Assembly (NCBI GenBank): GCA_002726235.1
Contig: PBSN01000001.1
Span: 17,266 to 58,126 of the forward strand
Length of the DNA: 40,861 nt
DNA from: Nitrospiraceae bacterium
GTDB taxonomy: Bacteria > Nitrospirota > Nitrospiria > Nitrospirales > UBA2166
Reading direction: 5' to 3'
This document shows, piece by piece, positions 1-12,330 of this stretch; within the stretch, counting starts at the first letter, position 1, and every line of letters starts with the position of its first letter. The translations under genes and the position numbers were made by a program. The notes under the pieces are model-generated. The model saw only the letters and a program-made list of their open reading frames with translations. It searched no databases and had not been told where the DNA came from.

Positions 1-1476
1 CCGGCGGATTATGAGGCTGCACGCGGTGCAAAGATACAAACGCACATGTCGTCGATAGAAGAGGTGACCTCAGACCTTGTGAGCTATCTCCAAGGCATGA
101 CGATTTGCAGTCACCCCTATACCCAGCAAAATGTTGTACCCCCACCTTCAATCCCAAGTCTTATTGGTGTCCTTCTCTCGTCCTTATACAACGCGAATAT
201 CTCTTGGGACGAATACAGTCGCCGTGTTTCATTGGCTGAAGTGGAGGCAATCGCCATCACGGCACAACTCCTCGGGTACGATCCAGATAAGGCGGGAGGC
301 GTATTTACCTTTGGAGGAACCGGAACCACCCTCTATGGCGTCAAGATTGGGTTAGAAAAAGCCTGTCCACATACCATGCGAGACGGGATATCCAACGACA
401 TCGTCGTCTTCGTCTCGGATGCCGGTCACTATTGTGCCCATAACGTCACCAGTTGGCTTGGCATTGGCACCTCACGCCTCCATACCATCCCGACGACAGC
501 CGAAAATGAAATTGACGTGCATCTCCTTGAGCAGGAAGCTCGCACGGCACTGAGCACTGGAAAAAAAATTGCGGCGTTTATCGCGACCCTTGGCACAACC
601 GATGCGTTTGGCCTTGATGATTTGCAACGTATTGCCGTATTGCGAAACACATTGGTTGACGAATTCCAGCTTTCCTATCGCCCTCACATCCATGCAGATG
701 CTGTCATCGGATGGGCGTGGTCAGTCTTCAACGACTACGATTTTGAAGACAATCCTCTCGAGTTTCGCCCGCGTACCGTTCGTGCCCTCGCAGGAACCTG
801 CCGCCGAATACGCCACTTGCATCTCGCAGATTCCATCGGCGTGGATTTCCACAAGACAGGGTTCGTGCCATATATTTCAAGTGCCTTCATCGTCAAAAAT
901 CGAGAAGACCTGCATCTCATTACACGCCCACAGGAACAGATGCCCTATCTCTATCACTTTGGCGAACATCGCCCAGGAATGCTGACTCTAGAAACCTCAC
1001 GCGCAGGAACCGGGCCGTTAGCAGCACTCGCCAATCTCCGCCTCCTTGGCCAAGAGGGACTTCGCGTCATCATCGGCCACATCGTCGAGATGGCTCAACT
1101 CCTCCGTGAACATTTAGAAGGACATGAAGCCATTACCATCCTCAACCGTGATAACTTTGGAACCGTAAACATCTTCCGTACCTACCCACTCGGCGTCGAT
1201 ACCTTTGCGATCAAAGAACAGGAGTTTGAAGACCCAGATTACCGAACCTCACTATTAGAGCATAATGAATATAATCGAAAGATTTTTCATTACGTCCATG
1301 CCGAGGCGATGGCCGGACGAGGGGTCGTGCTTTCACAAACCGAGTGTTATAGGCGAACACACTATGGCGAACCCATTGCAGCGATAAAATCATTCATTTT
1401 GTCCCCATTCGTTGATACACAAGACGTCGAGATTGTCGTCAGCAAAATTCTTGAAGCGAGAAAACACATATCATGA
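1..1476 (+). CDS. PLP-dependent group II decarboxylase (5' end outside window)
   Basis: Amino-acid decarboxylase of the pyridoxal-phosphate group II family (glutamate/tyrosine/aromatic amino-acid decarboxylases). The frame is open to base 1, with no stop before the ATG at 46 and no ribosome site in front of that ATG, so the gene probably starts outside the window. Numbering from ATG 46: the PLP-stacking His is H128 (DAGHYCAHN), the pyridine-contacting Asp is D218 in HADA, and the Schiff-base lysine is K270 in VDFHKTG. All core residues are present, so the enzyme should be active. The entry block (HPYTQQNVVPPPSIPSLIG) lies near residue 25; relatives have about 100 residues before it, which again implies truncation by the window. 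Substrate cannot be read from the sequence; tyrosine or another aromatic/acidic amino acid is possible. Confidence 0.9.
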   Translation, partial: PADYEAARGAKIQTHMSSIEEVTSDLVSYLQGMTICSHPYTQQNVVPPPSIPSLIGVLLSSLYNANISWDEYSRRVSLAEVEAIAITAQLLGYDPDKAGGVFTFGGTGTTLYGVKIGLEKACPHTMRDGISNDIVVFVSDAGHYCAHNVTSWLGIGTSRLHTIPTTAENEIDVHLLEQEARTALSTGKKIAAFIATLGTTDAFGLDDLQRIAVLRNTLVDEFQLSYRPHIHADAVIGWAWSVFNDYDFEDNPLEFRPRTVRALAGTCRRIRHLHLADSIGVDFHKTGFVPYISSAFIVKNREDLHLITRPQEQMPYLYHFGEHRPGMLTLETSRAGTGPLAALANLRLLGQEGLRVIIGHIVEMAQLLREHLEGHEAITILNRDNFGTVNIFRTYPLGVDTFAIKEQEFEDPDYRTSLLEHNEYNRKIFHYVHAEAMAGRGVVLSQTECYRRTHYGEPIAAIKSFILSPFVDTQDVEIVVSKILEARKHIS

Positions 1477-5932: not shown

Positions 5933-6526
5933 TTAGTGATTCGATATACAGTCGTGGGAGAACCGTTTCGCTTCCGCGAGTTGTTCTGGTGACATCCGGT
6001 TTTTGACACGATCACGATTCTTGATTGCAAGATTCCTGACTTCGCTGTCAGTCAAAGTCGTCGCGGCGAGGCTAAAGCACTTATGCGCTAGCACATAGTC
6101 TCGTGGTACCCCTTGCCCGTTGGCGTACATCACGCCAAGATTGTATTGGGCCAACACATAGCCAGCTTCCGCAGCTTGACGGTACCAGTACACCGCTGCC
6201 TTAACATCTTGCAGCACTCCTCTTCCCTCCTCGTACATCAGGCCAAGATTTACTTGGGCCAACGCATAGCCGGCCTTAGCGGCTTGGTGATACCAGCGCA
6301 CCGCTACTTCAACGTCTTGCGGCACCCCATTTCCATCCTCGTACATCAATCCAAGATTGAATTGAGCCTTCGTATCGCCAGTCTCCGCAGCTTGCCTGAA
6401 CTTCTGGATAGCCATTACATAGTCCGTACGGTTATACGCATCCACACCATCGTCATAGTTACCAGCCAGTACAATCTGGCTAACACTAAATACCAAAAGC
6501 AGGGAGAACACGACGGGTGTCATCAT
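5933..6526 (-). CDS. Sel1-repeat (TPR-like) exported protein
   Basis: A 197-aa protein with an N-terminal signal peptide (MMTPVVFSLLLVFSVSQIVLA) and then about three Sel1 repeats: A-x-FNLG-x-MYEDGNGV-PQD, QVNLGLMYEEGRGV, QYNLGVMYANGQGV, each followed by a WY-x-QAAxAG half. The C-terminus (SPEQLAEAKRF) matches the tails of the other two Sel1 proteins in the window. Sel1 proteins are secreted or periplasmic protein-interaction scaffolds; no catalytic residues. No shared promoter element is visible upstream, unlike its neighbours. The start codon has no strong ribosome site. Confidence 0.85.
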   Translation of the reverse strand: MMTPVVFSLLLVFSVSQIVLAGNYDDGVDAYNRTDYVMAIQKFRQAAETGDTKAQFNLGLMYEDGNGVPQDVEVAVRWYHQAAKAGYALAQVNLGLMYEEGRGVLQDVKAAVYWYRQAAEAGYVLAQYNLGVMYANGQGVPRDYVLAHKCFSLAATTLTDSEVRNLAIKNRDRVKNRMSPEQLAEAKRFSHDCISNH

Positions 6527-7060: not shown

Positions 7061-7447
7061 TCATGGCGTGATGGCTACCCCATTAGGACCATCCCCAACA
7101 GGAATCGTGGCGACGACCGTATTCGTGGTCACATCAATCACTGAGACAGTATTAGAAAGCCAGTTCGTCACATAAGCGCGAGTCCCATCCGGCGTAATGG
7201 CGACTCCGTTGGGAGCATCCTCAACCGGAATCGTGGCAATGACCGTATTCGTGTCTACGTCAATCACTGAGACGGTGCCGGAGGAATTGTTTGTCACATA
7301 GGCACGCGTTGATGACTTGACCGACTGCGAGACTGTGGGCTGCTGAAGGGATACGGGTTCAACATTTTTATCCCCTTCGCACGAAACGGCAACGAACGAA
7401 AATACTAAGATAACAACAATTCTTGTAAGTTGGATACATCTCATCAT
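7061..7447 (-). CDS. two-blade YVTN beta-propeller lipoprotein, probably truncated
   Basis: A 128-aa lipoprotein: signal peptide, then lipobox VAVSC (Cys about residue 23). A linker is followed by two ~42-residue YVTN blades (AYVTNNSSGTVSVIDVDTNT and AYVTNWLSNTVSVIDVTTNT), each continuing ATIPV-x-PNGVAITP. The two blades are also similar as DNA (about 126-nt unit). YVTN proteins normally need about seven blades for a closed propeller. This one stops immediately after the second VAITP, exactly where the next blade (DGTRAYVTN) should begin, so it is probably a 3'-truncated remnant or a repeat-contracted allele. It has its own promoter of the shared family at 7482-7510. Confidence 0.75.
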   Translation of the reverse strand: MMRCIQLTRIVVILVFSFVAVSCEGDKNVEPVSLQQPTVSQSVKSSTRAYVTNNSSGTVSVIDVDTNTVIATIPVEDAPNGVAITPDGTRAYVTNWLSNTVSVIDVTTNTVVATIPVGDGPNGVAITP

Positions 7448-7481
7448 GGGATGTTATTCATTTTTTCACCATAGCGGAAGA

Positions 7482-7533
7482 AGTGTACGCCTCACAGGAA
7501 CACAATTCAATATCCACCGTCGGGAGGGAATGG
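7482..7533 (-). promoter_or_regulatory. shared promoter element, copy A
   Basis: On the minus strand: -35 TTGAAT (7510-7505), 17-nt spacer, -10 TACACT (7487-7482), with an upstream box CCATTCCCT (7533-7525) 14 nt above the -35. The predicted start near 7475 gives a ~28-nt leader for the YVTN lipoprotein. Same architecture as copies B, C and D. Confidence 0.65.
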
Positions 7534-7674
7534 CTTTGCGGAGAAGTATCATTTTTGCCCATGCCATTTTCATCTCGGTTGAAGGCCTTGAGTTTGGGTG
7601 ATATTAAGATACGGATTCTTTGAGCATGCAATAGAACGACACCGCCTCACGAGTGGAGCTATTCTAAATTGAAC

Positions 7675-8899
7675 CTATCCCACCACCTCAGACAAAGGTC
7701 TGCGCATTGCTTGCGAACGTGCTTCTTCTGCACGGGATATGGCTACCGCTGACATTGGAGTGTTATAGGATGCTTTGGTCAGATCAAACCCAAGCACGCA
7801 ATAGAGTTCATCCAAATTGGCCTCATCTAAATCGCGAGCGAGTACCCACTTGTGATTCTCTACTGGCAAGCAGTAACCGGACTGCTGGAGGTCTCGCATA
7901 ATTTCAAAAACAGTAGCTACGCCAAGTTCGCGTTCGAGGACGTCATCACTCAATCCACCGCCTTTCTGATGTTGGCTCTTAAGCAAATGGAGAACATGCA
8001 ACACCGCCGCCATCCTTTCGGCTGGTGTCATGGGATGTTCTGAGACGTAGCTGGAATATTTCCAGTCCTCAAGAGCAGAAGTCAGCAATGCCCCAAGAAG
8101 GACGACGACCCAAACCAAAAACATCCAGATCAGAAAAATAGGAATAGCCGCGAGCACACCATAGATGACATGGTAGGAAGAAAAAATTAAAATAACCCCC
8201 CCCACAAATAGTTTCTTAAGAATCGCAAATAGAACCCCGGCCAAGATGCCCCCGGTCACTCCACTTTGCCAATGAACAGTGCGGTTGGGAACAGCACTGT
8301 AAAAGATGGTCAACTCAATCACCATGATCAGATTTGGAACAACCTCATGGACTAGTGAAGATCCAAGAGAATTACTGAACTGAGCGACATCAAACCAAGC
8401 GGACAACGCGTAAAGATACGTGGACAACGACAAACTGATTCCAATAAGCAACGGGCTCAGAGTTAACAAAGCCCAGAACATGAGCACCCGAAAAGCCAGT
8501 GGGCGCTGGATGCGTACGCGAAAAATTCGATTCAGCGCACTTTCAATGGTGGCAAGCAGAATGATGGCCGTCACTCCCAGTCCAATAATTCCCATTGTTG
8601 TCAGCTTGCCTGTTTGTTGAGTGAAGTTGTGCAGATAGCGAGACACAACATCGCCTGCAGCAGGCACAAAGTTCTGAAAGACGTAGTACTGAACCTGTTG
8701 CTGAATCCCGTCAAAGGCAGGAAAAGCTGAAAAAAATGGCAAAACTGATAGCGAGCAGAGGTACCAGCGATAACAAAGTGGTGTAGCTCAACGATGCCGC
8801 AATGCGCAAACACTGATCATCATGAAACCGGTACAGAATAGAGCCTGAGAGTTCCTTGAGATCGCCTACATGAAAATTGCGTGGGCTCGACGTAGCCAT
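7675..8899 (-). CDS. YihY/BrkB-family inner-membrane protein, interrupted by a frameshift
   Basis: Polytopic membrane protein of the YihY/virulence-factor-BrkB family, about 408 aa if restored. The N-terminal part (8899 to about 8730) reads MATSSPRNFHVGD...LLSLVPLLAISFAIF and then runs into a stop. The remainder continues in another frame as SAFPAFDGIQQQ...NFVPAAGDVV and carries the ATIESALNRIFRV segment, several helices and a soluble tail. The break is a run of seven T on the coding strand (plus-strand A at 8730-8736); six T would restore the family sequence exactly. This could be a real disruption, a phase-variable tract or a sequencing error. ATG 8742 could start the downstream fragment, but that would lack the first helix. 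Promoter copy B lies ~220 nt upstream. Confidence 0.85.
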
Positions 8900-9266
8900 A
8901 GTGCAATCCTCCCTATTGGACTAAGAGTCCTCTACCATCAGTAAGGATAGGTTGTCCAGAACACTCCCATCCCTATCACTCTATAAATTTTCCACATCAT
9001 TGGGTGGGTAACGCCCAGCAAGACGGCTCTTCTTTTTGAGAAATCAGACAAGGTTGGGAAAGAAAAGGTGTAGCAGTGAGGAAGGGACCAAAGCACTGAA
9101 AACTTCCTCAACAATGATGTGTGCAGGGTACGCCGAACCGAAACAGGATTCAATCTTCCCCTTCATATGTTGGGATAAATCAAGGAGGAGCAAACGGTGT
9201 GTTATGGCTAATATCGACTTCGAACGTGTTGACGTAATCGATACGTATGTGTCGCGTGATGAGGTG
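8900..9266. other. intergenic region containing promoter copy B
   Basis: 367 nt upstream of the YihY-family gene and downstream of a Sel1 gene. It holds shared promoter element copy B (9125-9178). Beyond it, about 9180-9213 resembles the sequence upstream of copy C (both end in a GTTATG-x-CTAAT motif), suggesting a duplicated promoter segment. No gene is supported. Confidence 0.5.
9125..9178 (-). promoter_or_regulatory. shared promoter element, copy B
   Basis: Minus strand: -35 TTGAAT (9153-9148), 17-nt spacer, -10 TACCCT (9130-9125), and a diverged upstream box (TATCCCA) 17 nt above the -35. It would start transcription near 9118, giving a ~220-nt leader for the YihY-family gene. Weakest -10 of the four copies. 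Confidence 0.5.
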
Positions 9267-9830
9267 TTAGCGAGTTGGTGTCCACTCGCGGGCCAACCGG
9301 TTTGCTTCCGCAATCTCCTGTTGCGACATCTTTTGTGCGAGTTCATCACGGCGTTCGATGACTCGATCTCGTGTTTCTTGGATAGACACATCCGCTACAG
9401 CAAGGGTATACCACTTATACGCTTGGATGGCATCTGGCAATACCCCTCGCCCCAATTCATACATCTTGCCAAGATTAACCTGAGCAATCGCATAGCTACC
9501 CTCTGCGGATTTCGTATACCAGTTCAACGCTTCCTGATTATTCTGCGGCACACCCTTTCCGTAATAGTACATCCAGCCAATCCAGTTATGGGCCTTGGCA
9601 TGGCCAGACTCTGCAGCCTTCATGAACTGCTCTAAGGCAGTTGCATAGTCCTTCTGATTAAACGCATCCTTTCCATCGTGATAGAAGTCGTCGCCTTGGG
9701 GTACTTCAGCTGAGGTAGAGGAGGAGACTACTGCGGGAAGCGGATCGACAGAGTCCGCGGTCTTCTTGGGTTCACATCCGATACTGGACACAATGAGAAT
9801 GACGAGAAGAGGCATCGTGATCAAAGGCAT
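9267..9830 (-). CDS. Sel1-repeat lipoprotein
   Basis: A 187-aa protein from ATG 9830, chosen because GGAG sits 8 nt upstream and the product begins directly with a lipoprotein signal (MPLITMPLLVILIVSSIGC, Cys 19). The longer frame to 9905 would bury the signal behind 25 residues. After a linker come about two to three Sel1/TPR-like repeats (AHNWIGWMYYYGKGVPQN, AQVNLGKMYELGRGVLPD), and then a C-terminal MSQQEIAEANRLAREW helix shared with the neighbouring Sel1 proteins. Expected to be membrane-anchored and scaffold-like. Promoter copy C lies upstream with a leader of about 148 nt. Confidence 0.85.
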   Translation of the reverse strand: MPLITMPLLVILIVSSIGCEPKKTADSVDPLPAVVSSSTSAEVPQGDDFYHDGKDAFNQKDYATALEQFMKAAESGHAKAHNWIGWMYYYGKGVPQNNQEALNWYTKSAEGSYAIAQVNLGKMYELGRGVLPDAIQAYKWYTLAVADVSIQETRDRVIERRDELAQKMSQQEIAEANRLAREWTPTR

Positions 9831-10133
9831 ACAGTTTTCTCCAACCAGAACTTTAGATTGATAGTCACTTATCGCCAGAAGACTGTGCGGAACAATCTTC
9901 ACCACATTACACCTTTCTTAATCAAGCAGGTTGAAGGAGGTGTCATTGTAACTCAGAATTCACTCACATTATCATCACTGAATAAGTGTACGTCTGCCAA
10001 AAACACGACTCAAGCTTCACCTCATGTAGGGAATGGAGAGAGGAAGAACGATGCGTTATGACTAATGACGGTGTTTTGCTTCAGATGCGAGAAACTACTA
10101 ACAAGCAAGCCCCCACGTGACCAAATCATGAAC
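9831..10133. other. leader and promoter region, no supported gene
   Basis: About 300 nt upstream of the Sel1 lipoprotein, holding promoter copy C (9985-10036). The segment 10030-10065 resembles that above copy B. Nothing else recognisable. Confidence 0.5.
9985..10036 (-). promoter_or_regulatory. shared promoter element, copy C
   Basis: Minus strand: -35 TTGAGT (10013-10008), 17-nt spacer, -10 TACACT (9990-9985), upstream box CCATTCCCT ending 14 nt above the -35. Same length as copy A and about 70% identical to it over 51 nt. Drives the Sel1 lipoprotein. Confidence 0.65.
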
Positions 10134-10316
10134 CTAGAGAAAGCAGGTTGTAAATTTATTGACGAGCTTGGAGGTGAATGCAAACGGTATCGCAAGAGGT
10201 CCAAATATTGCGCCCATTAAACCCAAAAAAACAGACTTTGCTCCTCTACGTTTTGCTACGGAATGACAGACAACTATGCTCAATATATTTAGCGCTACTA
10301 AAACGTAAATCGCCAT
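10134..10316 (-). CDS. 60-aa membrane protein
   Basis: Small protein with one N-terminal helix (MAIYVLVALNILSIVVCHSVA), a basic turn (KRRGAKS) and a second helix with GLMGAIFGPLAIPFAF. This helix, Lys/Arg-rich turn, G-x-x-GA-x-FGP pattern is common among small bacterial membrane proteins annotated only as hypothetical. ATG 10316 is preceded by GGAG with 6-nt spacing, which supports real translation. No function can be proposed. Confidence 0.6.
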   Translation of the reverse strand: MAIYVLVALNILSIVVCHSVAKRRGAKSVFLGLMGAIFGPLAIPFAFTSKLVNKFTTCFL

Positions 10317-10743
10317 CTTTGTTCTCCATCAATAAACCCCATTCATGTCCGGTTAGACGCAGAGCATTATCATTCACGCGCACATTCCACCTCACTACTG
10401 CGCAACACTTTATAGCCCATGGTAGATATCTTCACATGATTCCTTCGAGTAAAGCATCAGCCTTTCTAGTGCATGGGGCTTTACCTCATTTCATTTGTCA
10501 ACCTTTGGGCTTCATCGATTTGTCCAGCATTCAGATTCAAGGCTACTTGGCATCAACCGGATTGCTCCAACAGATTGATGACAACAAATATCGTGACAAC
10601 GAGAGTCGGGGTTAACGCCGCTGAACAATCGATGCCAAGTTTGACGATTCATCGACCATATACATTATGTCACGCGGTCCAAGATTCAAAAGCACTATGG
10701 CAAACGGGACAATAATTATAAAACCAACGAGGTTGATGAGGTG
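10317..10743. other. intergenic region with a Sel1 relic
   Basis: 427 nt between the 60-aa protein and the third Sel1 gene. It contains a decayed minus-strand Sel1-like fragment (separate entry). The remainder shows no supported gene. Confidence 0.5.
10480..10620 (-). pseudogene. relic of a Sel1-type gene
   Basis: Translating the minus strand gives a hydrophobic signal-like stretch (LVVTIFVVINLLEQSG), an in-frame stop, and then NAGQIDEAQRLTNEM and further stops. The last block aligns with the C-terminal helix of the neighbouring Sel1 proteins (HQIAEAEKFIRERM and QQEIAEANRLAREW). It looks like a Sel1 gene that lost its central repeats by deletion and then decayed. Short match, so modest confidence. 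Confidence 0.35.
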
Positions 10744-11457
10744 CTAGCGAATCGGCATCCGCTCGCGGATGAACTTTTCAGCCTCAGCGATTTGGTGAGG
10801 GGTCATAAACGCGACAATCGCATCACGTTTCCTAACTTCATTCCCTCCATCTCCAGAAGCCGCGAGAGTGGCCCACACATAAGCGAGCACGTAATCCATG
10901 GGAACGCCTTTCCCAAAATAATACATTGAGGCAAGATTGTATTGGGCTCCCCGATCACCAGCTTCAGCGGCTTTCCGATACCACCTCACCGCTCGCTGAT
11001 CGTCCTGCATCACACCTTTCCCATGAGCATACATCACGCCAAGGGCGGTCTGAGCACCCGTATCGCCAGCCTCAGCGGCTTTCGTGTACCAGTACATTGC
11101 TTGCGCATAATCCTGTGGTCCACCCCTCCCCTCGACGCACATTGAGGCAAGATTGTATTGAGCCTCCATGTAACCATCTTCAGCAGCTTCTATGTACCAG
11201 TGCATCGCCTGCTCATGGTCTTGCGACACACGTTCTCCAAACCGGTACAGTGATCCAAAAATAGATTGTGGCCGTAGATTGCCGGTCTTGTCCGACTCCA
11301 TCAACTTCGTAAAAGTCGCCGCATAGTCATCCTTAAGATAAGAAATCAAGGCATCTTCACCGTCTCCAGCCACCGCAACGCCAGTCCCACCGACCAGAAA
11401 TACCAGTGCGAACACTATGGACTTCACCACACCTCCAATTGAAAATTGATAGATCAT
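10744..11457 (-). CDS. Sel1-repeat exported protein
   Basis: About 237 aa from ATG 11457; the frame is open to 11499 but the extra residues precede the signal peptide. Signal peptide around SIVFALVFLVGGTGVAVA, then four Sel1 repeats (SIFGSLYRFGERV, YNLASMCVEGRGG, TALGVMYAHGKGV, YNLASMYYFGKGV), each with a WY-x-AAEAGD half. The C-terminus is TPHQIAEAEKFIRERMP. A GTG with GGAGG just upstream, inside the signal region, is an alternative start. It lies 91 nt downstream of the holin-like gene and has no promoter element of its own, so it is probably transcribed with it from copy D. Confidence 0.85.
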   Translation of the reverse strand: MIYQFSIGGVVKSIVFALVFLVGGTGVAVAGDGEDALISYLKDDYAATFTKLMESDKTGNLRPQSIFGSLYRFGERVSQDHEQAMHWYIEAAEDGYMEAQYNLASMCVEGRGGPQDYAQAMYWYTKAAEAGDTGAQTALGVMYAHGKGVMQDDQRAVRWYRKAAEAGDRGAQYNLASMYYFGKGVPMDYVLAYVWATLAASGDGGNEVRKRDAIVAFMTPHQIAEAEKFIRERMPIR

Positions 11458-11514
11458 ACGCGAGTCCGAGCCTCGTTCAGTTCCATGAACATGCACCACC
11501 GTGAAATTGGTGCG

Positions 11515-11548
11515 AGTGTTTTGGTGTCCATTCGCTGGCTAGATAGCT
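11515..11548 (-). pseudogene. possible 3'-end relic of a Sel1 gene
   Basis: Immediately after the stop of the holin-like gene, one minus-strand frame reads ASEWTPK, matching the C-terminus AREWTPTR of the Sel1 lipoprotein at 9267-9830, with similar DNA (the TGGACACCAA core is shared). Very short, so only suggestive. Confidence 0.25.
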
Positions 11549-11821
11549 TCAACAACAAGGTTTTTGATCGACTCTTCTAGAAATCAGGTTGTAAAGCCAC
11601 GCGAAGATCGCCCCCCCAACGATGCCATCGACAAAAGCCCACATAAGGCCAATGATGCTTCCAAGCGGACTGATGGTGTAGCCCCGATAGACATACCCAA
11701 TAAAGGTCTTTTCCCCGATGACATGCGGTTCAAAAAAAATGATCCACCACGTAAGTATGAAAAGGCCGAGTCCCCAAAAAATCCCACATGCGAGAGCAAA
11801 CGCTTTTATATTGAATGTCAT
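11549..11821 (-). CDS. bacteriophage-holin-like small membrane protein
   Basis: A 90-aa protein with two membrane segments: ALACGIFWGLGLFILTWWII and a second around SIIGLMWAFVDGIVGGAIFAW, separated by a short loop containing YVYRGYTISPLGS. This matches the small bacterial family usually annotated as bacteriophage holin, although no other phage gene is present here, so a lysis role is doubtful. ATG 11821 has a strong ribosome site (GAGGAGG, 6-nt spacing). Promoter copy D lies ~60 nt upstream. First gene of a likely two-gene unit with the Sel1 protein. Confidence 0.8.
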   Translation of the reverse strand: MTFNIKAFALACGIFWGLGLFILTWWIIFFEPHVIGEKTFIGYVYRGYTISPLGSIIGLMWAFVDGIVGGAIFAWLYNLISRRVDQKPCC

Positions 11822-12330
11822 GATTCACCTCCTCGTGTTAAAGAAAGCAAGTGGTGAACAACAAATATAACGCAACGACACATACAGTGTACGCCTCTCC
11901 GAATCGCGATTCAATCTTTACTGCCGATGCATATAGGGAATAGGAGAAAAATTACGGAGCTCCAGCATCTCACTAGATGCCTTGCTCAGGAGACTGTCCG
12001 TCTTAGAGACGGGGAATAGTTAGAGTTCGCTAGCATCGACCTTTTCAATTGTTCACAGTTAACTAAAGTTTCTTCCTAATAAATCTTCCTATAAGAATTT
12101 GGCCAATTCGAACAAACCGATGCCGGATCTCTTCACTTTGTCGTTTCACCTGATATTAATGCCGAGACTAATTGTGTATGATTGGCACTCAACACAATCT
12201 TGCCGTACTTGTCTTGAAAATTTCCAATTTGGGACTTACCCGCACCGCCTGCATTACCCTTACCATTAGTACAAGACAGGAACCTACCCACCAATGCGAC
12301 GCAAGAAGATCATCCGCGTAAACTAAGCCA
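11822..12330. other. divergent intergenic region with promoter copy D and two hairpins
   Basis: 509 nt between the minus-strand holin-like gene and the plus-strand DUF123 gene. It contains promoter copy D, a hairpin GCATCT-CACT-AGATGC (11965-11980) and a tight hairpin CCGTCT-TAG-AGACGG (11998-12012). Neither hairpin is followed by a T-run, so they are not classical terminators. No gene is supported. Confidence 0.5.
11886..11945 (-). promoter_or_regulatory. shared promoter element, copy D
   Basis: Minus strand: -35 TTGAAT (11914-11909), 17-nt spacer, -10 TACACT (11891-11886), and an upstream box TATTCCCTA 20 nt above the -35 (six more than in copies A and C). Start near 11879. Drives the holin-like and Sel1 genes. 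Confidence 0.65.

What the first reader, a model, noticed from the sequence alone, without database searches (positions are those of the whole stretch)
7482..11945. A shared promoter/operator element drives four envelope-gene units
Four minus-strand regions (7482-7533, 9125-9178, 9985-10036, 11886-11945) align over ~52-60 nt. Each has a -35 TTGAAT/TTGAGT, an exactly 17-nt spacer and a TACACT (once TACCCT) -10. Three keep a CCATTCCCT/TATTCCCTA box 14-20 nt above the -35. The units they precede (YVTN lipoprotein, YihY/BrkB protein, Sel1 lipoprotein, holin-like plus Sel1) are all envelope proteins. The conserved upstream box beyond the core promoter suggests one activator or repressor and a small envelope regulon.
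Basis: seen in the sequence. Interest (0 to 1): 0.72.

Follow-up and report, generated by a model that had tools for sequence, protein, structure and literature searches.

The report
Lineage-specific promoter module before envelope genes
A roughly 50-base promoter element, repeated about a dozen times in the genome of an uncultured marine relative of nitrite-oxidising bacteria, sits in front of exported and membrane-protein genes and probably switches them on together; it is a real and previously undescribed regulon signal, but of a familiar kind.

Summary
The four promoter-like sites are real and far from chance: 4 matches within 3 mismatches against 0.01 expected. A profile built from them finds 13 copies on six contigs of the window's genome and 10 in one congener, Nitrospiraceae bacterium UBA2166. 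It finds none above chance in 55 other Nitrospirales genomes, including two congeners. It spans about -48 to +1, with a 17-nt spacer that is itself conserved. In six orthologue pairs the module is a conserved island (68-80%); in most pairs the flanks are no more alike than shuffles. Every copy with an identifiable downstream gene precedes an exported or membrane protein: Sel1 proteins, YVTN lipoprotein, BrkB, holin-like, OMP barrel, YgaP-TM, DUF6868. The 'CCATTCCCT box' is not a discrete element but part of a C/T-rich tract. tRNA genes with a recognisable promoter use mostly canonical TTGACA/TATAAT-type sequences. Its trans-acting factor is unidentified: probably RpoD polymerase plus a regulator over -35/spacer, less likely the single ECF sigma. 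Several other envelope genes in the window lack the module.

The parts
11879..11928 (-). Promoter module copy 1 (before holin-like protein and Sel1 protein): -35 TTGAAT 11914-11909, 17-nt spacer, -10 TACACT 11891-11886, predicted start near 11880
   Evidence: footprint against G003
9978..10027 (-). Promoter module copy 2 (before Sel1 lipoprotein): TTGAGT 10013-10008, TACACT 9990-9985, predicted start near 9979
9118..9167 (-). Promoter module copy 3 (before the YihY/BrkB gene; the most divergent of the four window copies): TTGAAT 9153-9148, TACCCT 9130-9125, predicted start near 9119; leader about 220 nt
7475..7524 (-). Promoter module copy 4 (before YVTN-repeat lipoprotein): TTGAAT 7510-7505, TACACT 7487-7482, predicted start near 7476
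   Evidence: conserved in the G003 orthologue
11549..11821 (-). Holin-like small membrane protein, 90 aa (NCBIfam holin_4), first gene behind copy 1
10744..11499 (-). Sel1-repeat protein with signal peptide, second gene behind copy 1
9267..9905 (-). Sel1-repeat lipoprotein behind copy 2
7675..8898 (-). YihY/BrkB-family inner-membrane protein behind copy 3; reading frame broken at a T7 run near 8735-8729
7061..7447 (-). Short YVTN-repeat lipoprotein behind copy 4

Best explanation
The four sites are members of a lineage-specific promoter class of about 23 copies over two species. The class has a sigma70-type geometry (TTGAA(T/C), 17 nt, TAnnCT) plus extra conserved sequence from about -48 to the start site. 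It works as the shared on-switch of a small set of exported and membrane-protein genes. Transcription starts about 7 nt below the -10, and each gene is read from its own copy. Shown by sequence: the module's existence, its boundaries, its position 30-221 nt upstream of start codons, its constraint between species and its kind of target. Inferred: that it is a promoter at all. Inferred with less certainty: that RpoD RNA polymerase uses it together with one common DNA-binding regulator contacting CRGTRAA/-35/spacer (a class II-like activator or an overlapping operator), so that the genes respond together.
For: Chance excluded in the window and in a 405 kb scan (real sites score 20-53 bits leave-one-out; no simulated control exceeds 14). 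13 copies in G000 on C1, C4, C6, C7, C8 and C12, and 10 in G003. The 21-site alignment shows near-invariant TTGAA, YCGTG, RGGCGTA and CT, with a 17-nt spacer in all but two copies. The module is a conserved island in six orthologue pairs, with flanks near shuffle level in most, and similarity between non-homologous genes is mostly confined to about -22..+60. All copies with an identifiable gene precede exported or membrane proteins of 8 unrelated families. Of the 11 sampled tRNA genes, those with a clear promoter have TTGAC(A/C)-16..18-TATxxx, all but one without GCG before the -10.
Against: No transcript data exist for this uncultured organism. No regulator gene was found that co-varies with or lies beside the module. 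About half of the identifiable targets are Sel1 paralogues, so part of the similarity could be inheritance by gene duplication. A loose hydrophobicity test already% of background ORFs membrane-like, so the envelope enrichment is significant (0.51^8, about 0.005, for 8 families) but not overwhelming. Two copies (C7:154355, C8:605474) have no evident gene.
Confidence: 0.68

Rival explanations
1. The module is the target of the genome's single ECF sigma factor (C6:29822, with an adjacent zf-HC2 anti-sigma gene), a SigW/RpoE-like envelope-stress sigma; TGAAYC is its -35 and GGCGTA its -10.
For: The motif resembles ECF sites (GAAC-type -35, CGTA -10), the ECF scores best against RpoE/SigW/SigM-type models among others, the targets are envelope genes, and only three sigma70-family genes were found in the genome.
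Against: The distance from TGAA to CGTA is about 2 nt shorter than the SigW arrangement known to me; the last T of TAnnCT is also near-invariant, which fits sigma70 better; the ECF gene's own upstream region has no module; the orthologous ECF is present in G001, which has no module.
Confidence: 0.22
2. The copies are mainly the residue of duplication: a promoter-plus-leader cassette of the expanded Sel1 family, copied with the genes and occasionally captured by neighbours, read by ordinary RpoD polymerase without any dedicated regulator.
For: Sel1 repeats number about 40 in the two genomes with the module against 7-10 in the two congeners without it; several Sel1 copies also share a leader, TTCAGTGATGATGCGAGTGAATTCTGAGGA; copies cluster on C1 and C7.
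Against: Between species the core is kept while adjacent DNA has mostly lost recognisable similarity, so it is under selection; unrelated genes (BrkB, YgaP-TM, DUF6868, OMP, YVTN, holin-like) carry it; conservation in the spacer and above the -35 exceeds what RpoD alone needs.
Confidence: 0.27
3. The similarity is an overlapping coding constraint or a chance match rather than a promoter.
For: In some Sel1 copies the downstream reading frame is open through the module.
Against: The module stands in different frames relative to the downstream gene at different loci, and unrelated proteins follow it; chance is excluded.
Confidence: 0.02

Closest known systems
Sigma70 (RpoD) promoters with extended elements and class II activator sites overlapping the -35
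   Same: TTGA -35, 17-nt spacer, TAnnnT -10, added conserved bases just above the -35 and before the -10
   Different: The conserved spacer YCGTGwTYC and the RGGCG (not TGn) extension match no motif I know; no activator has been identified
ECF sigma envelope-stress regulons (B. subtilis SigW, E. coli RpoE, S. coelicolor SigE, PMC6767563)
   Same: A small set of envelope genes under one sharply conserved two-block promoter; CGTA in the -10 block
   Different: Spacing, the additional near-invariant T of the -10, no autoregulated sigma gene, and absence from a congener that keeps the ECF
E. coli SigmaS-type -10 (CTACACT; from memory)
   Same: TACACT(T) with C at -8
   Different: G instead of C at -13; the sigma inventory contains RpoD, an RpoH-like protein and an ECF, with no RpoS found

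Membership tests
Sigma70-type promoter class | -35 and -10 hexamers with a fixed spacer near 17 nt | tested here: met
   17 nt in 19 of 21 aligned sites; TTGAA and TAnnCT near-invariant
Sigma70-type promoter class | Located upstream of, and pointing toward, genes genome-wide | tested here: met
   11 of 13 G000 copies precede a gene in the same orientation, start codon 30-221 nt below the predicted start
Sigma70-type promoter class | Transcription starts there | not testable with these tools
   needs 5'-end mapping
Regulon under one common factor | Conservation beyond the core promoter, kept between species by selection | tested here: met
   spacer and upstream information; conserved island in six orthologue pairs
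Regulon under one common factor | An identified regulator that binds or co-occurs with the sites | tested here: inconclusive
   sigma factors do not co-vary with the module; no adjacent regulator gene seen; other regulators not surveyed
ECF sigma regulon | Autoregulated sigma/anti-sigma operon carrying the same motif | tested here: not met
ECF sigma regulon | Motif present where the ECF orthologue is present | tested here: not met
   G001 has the ECF (79% identity) but no module; G001 is 88% complete and has few Sel1 genes, so this is weak
   1 of 18 other sites within one mismatch, P = 0.31 against shuffles

The most novel reading that the evidence does not exclude
A dedicated, as yet unknown regulator reads an unusually long promoter (CRGTRAA, -35, spacer and RGGCG all specified) and defines a new envelope regulon that arose within the UBA2166 lineage together with the expansion of Sel1 proteins, spreading to unrelated membrane genes by promoter capture.
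Probability: 0.35. Interest if true: 0.55.

Novelty: new member of a known kind. Interest (0 to 1): 0.4.

Why it matters
It ties unannotated small membrane proteins and Sel1 proteins of a barely studied marine, non-nitrifying sister lineage of the nitrite oxidisers (family UBA2166, PMC12342949) into one co-regulated set, which gives a handle on their function. It also shows a regulon that two species share and two congeners lack, so how a regulon arises can be studied. It is an ordinary kind of biological object otherwise.

Tried and rejected
First whole-genome pattern was mis-registered by one base and found nothing, then corrected. Two weak hits, in the trpS-like gene on C2 and a gene on C8, were rejected as chance because they lie inside coding sequence. 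A GTDB-wide exact-pattern scan gave 8 isolated single hits, fewer than the number expected by chance, one of which is G003 itself, so no spread beyond the genus is claimed. An autoregulated ECF promoter was looked for by footprinting the ECF and RpoH upstream regions of the genus; both look like vegetative promoters. A mobile-element origin was tested by aligning 500-nt flanks: no common boundaries, and similarity mostly ends near -22 and +60. Rfam: only a tRNA in the window. Literature searches found nothing on such a motif in Nitrospirota.

Full report
Observation. With up to three mismatches the 29-nt pattern occurs four times in the window against a mean of 0.01 in shuffled sequence. The copies are therefore related or under common selection.

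Genome-wide test. The 29-nt pattern allowed to mismatch found three further convincing sites on other contigs of the same genome. A 44-position profile from seven sites, and then a 50-position profile from 19 sites, gave 13 matches in G000 and 10 in the congener G003. Nearly all have E between 1e-11 and 1e-5; the weakest (about 0.005-0.4) are at or near chance level. Neither of the two other congeners (G001, G002) nor any of 53 further Nitrospirales genomes has a match better than 0.0036, which is what chance gives over that many genomes. An independent weight-matrix scan of 405 kb separates real sites (leave-one-out scores 20-53) from simulated background (none above 14) with almost nothing between; it added one weaker copy (C8:605474) and did not support the weakest profile hit (C6:13055), so the G000 total stays at 13. 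G003 is Nitrospiraceae bacterium UBA2166, since its contig 59 matches record DCWI01000003 over the compared 2 kb and in length. The window's genome is therefore a member of the UBA2166 family, which a comparative study describes as marine, basal and lacking nitrite oxidoreductase (PMC12342949).

Anatomy. Aligning 21 sites without gaps on the -35 gives C-R-G-T-R-A-A-n-A-TTGAA-Y-C-G-T-G-w-T-Y-C-n4-R-G-G-C-G-T-A-n-n-C-T-T-n-n-T-C. The -10 is TAnnCT rather than strictly TACACT (TATCCT, TAAACT, TATGCT, TACTCT, TAGACT also occur), nearly always with the RGGCG-like block before it. The spacer is 17 nt in all copies but C7_OMP (16) and one degenerate copy. Upstream of CRGTRAA there is no discrete box but a C/T-rich tract (72% C+T at -42..-9 against 51% further up); CCATTCCCT occurs at the other 18 sites no more than shuffles of the same tract give.

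Constraint. In six orthologue pairs between G000 and G003 the 50-nt module is 68-80% identical. The segments upstream are at or near the level of shuffled sequence in five of the six pairs; the exception is YVTN, where they are modestly above it. Between non-homologous genes of one genome, similarity mostly runs from about -22 to +35, in several Sel1-type copies to +60. The module is thus a selected island rather than the edge of a long duplication, although a shared leader (TTCAGTGATGATGCGAGTGAATTCTGAGGA) shows that some Sel1 copies did spread with their leader.

Targets. In the window the module precedes a holin-like protein plus a Sel1 protein, a Sel1 lipoprotein, a YihY/BrkB protein and a YVTN lipoprotein. 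Elsewhere it precedes Sel1 proteins (C4, C6, C7, C8), a YgaP-type membrane protein and an OMP beta-barrel (C7) and DUF6868 (C12); in G003 it also precedes an unclassified lipoprotein. Start codons lie 30-221 nt below the predicted start. Two copies have no evident gene. All identifiable targets are exported or membrane proteins. Against a loose background of 51%, eight unrelated families all of this kind gives about 0.005. The regulon is not 'the envelope genes': LPP20, LpoB, an SLT transglycosylase and the Sel1 gene at 5933-6526 in the same window have no module.

Which factor. A Pfam region-2 search finds three sigma70-family genes in G000: RpoD, an RpoH-like protein and one ECF with an adjacent zf-HC2 anti-sigma gene. 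Of 11 sampled tRNA genes, those with a clear promoter show TTGAC(A/C), 16-18 nt and TATxxx; only the tRNA-Gly one has GCG before the -10. The ECF hypothesis is attractive because of CGTA and the envelope targets, but the spacing is shorter than in the SigW-type motif I know, the final T of the -10 is near-invariant, the ECF gene itself lacks the module, and its orthologue exists in G001, which has no module. The holin-like orthologue in G002 likewise lacks it. I therefore favour RpoD polymerase with a common DNA-binding factor over the -35 and spacer. That step is inference; no factor was identified.

Verdict. It is a new instance of a familiar kind of thing.

Noticed in passing
window 8735-8729 (minus strand): The YihY/BrkB reading frame is broken at a run of seven T: the first 62 codons (from 8898) and the rest (from 8742) lie in different frames. 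A sequencing error in the assembly or a real frameshift cannot be told apart here.
   Followed up: partly
L031, L042, L029, L033, L014, L024 just below the module: Several Sel1-type copies (and the OMP copy) share a leader TTCAGTGATGATGCGAGTGAATTCTGAGGA, in some in frame with the protein (MMRVNS...), in others not; it may be a translated or regulatory leader.
   Followed up: partly
L108:18356 (G000 C7:154355): One of the best-scoring module copies faces no intact gene, only what looks like the end of a broken histidine-kinase gene and a convergent ABC-transporter ATPase gene.
   Followed up: partly
L117:28-2142 and L118:5335-7449 (G000 C4): A 2,115-bp inverted repeat, 100% identical, at the end of contig C4 and at about 91-93 kb, carrying tRNA-Arg and a Sel1 gene without the module; a recent duplication or an assembly artefact.
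   Followed up: partly
L132 (G003 C18:2639) and L131 (G001 C14): A second RpoD-like sigma factor (about 500 aa, 81% identical between the two) is present in G003 and G001 but was not found in G000 or G002; in G003 it lies about 8 kb from two module copies.
   Followed up: partly
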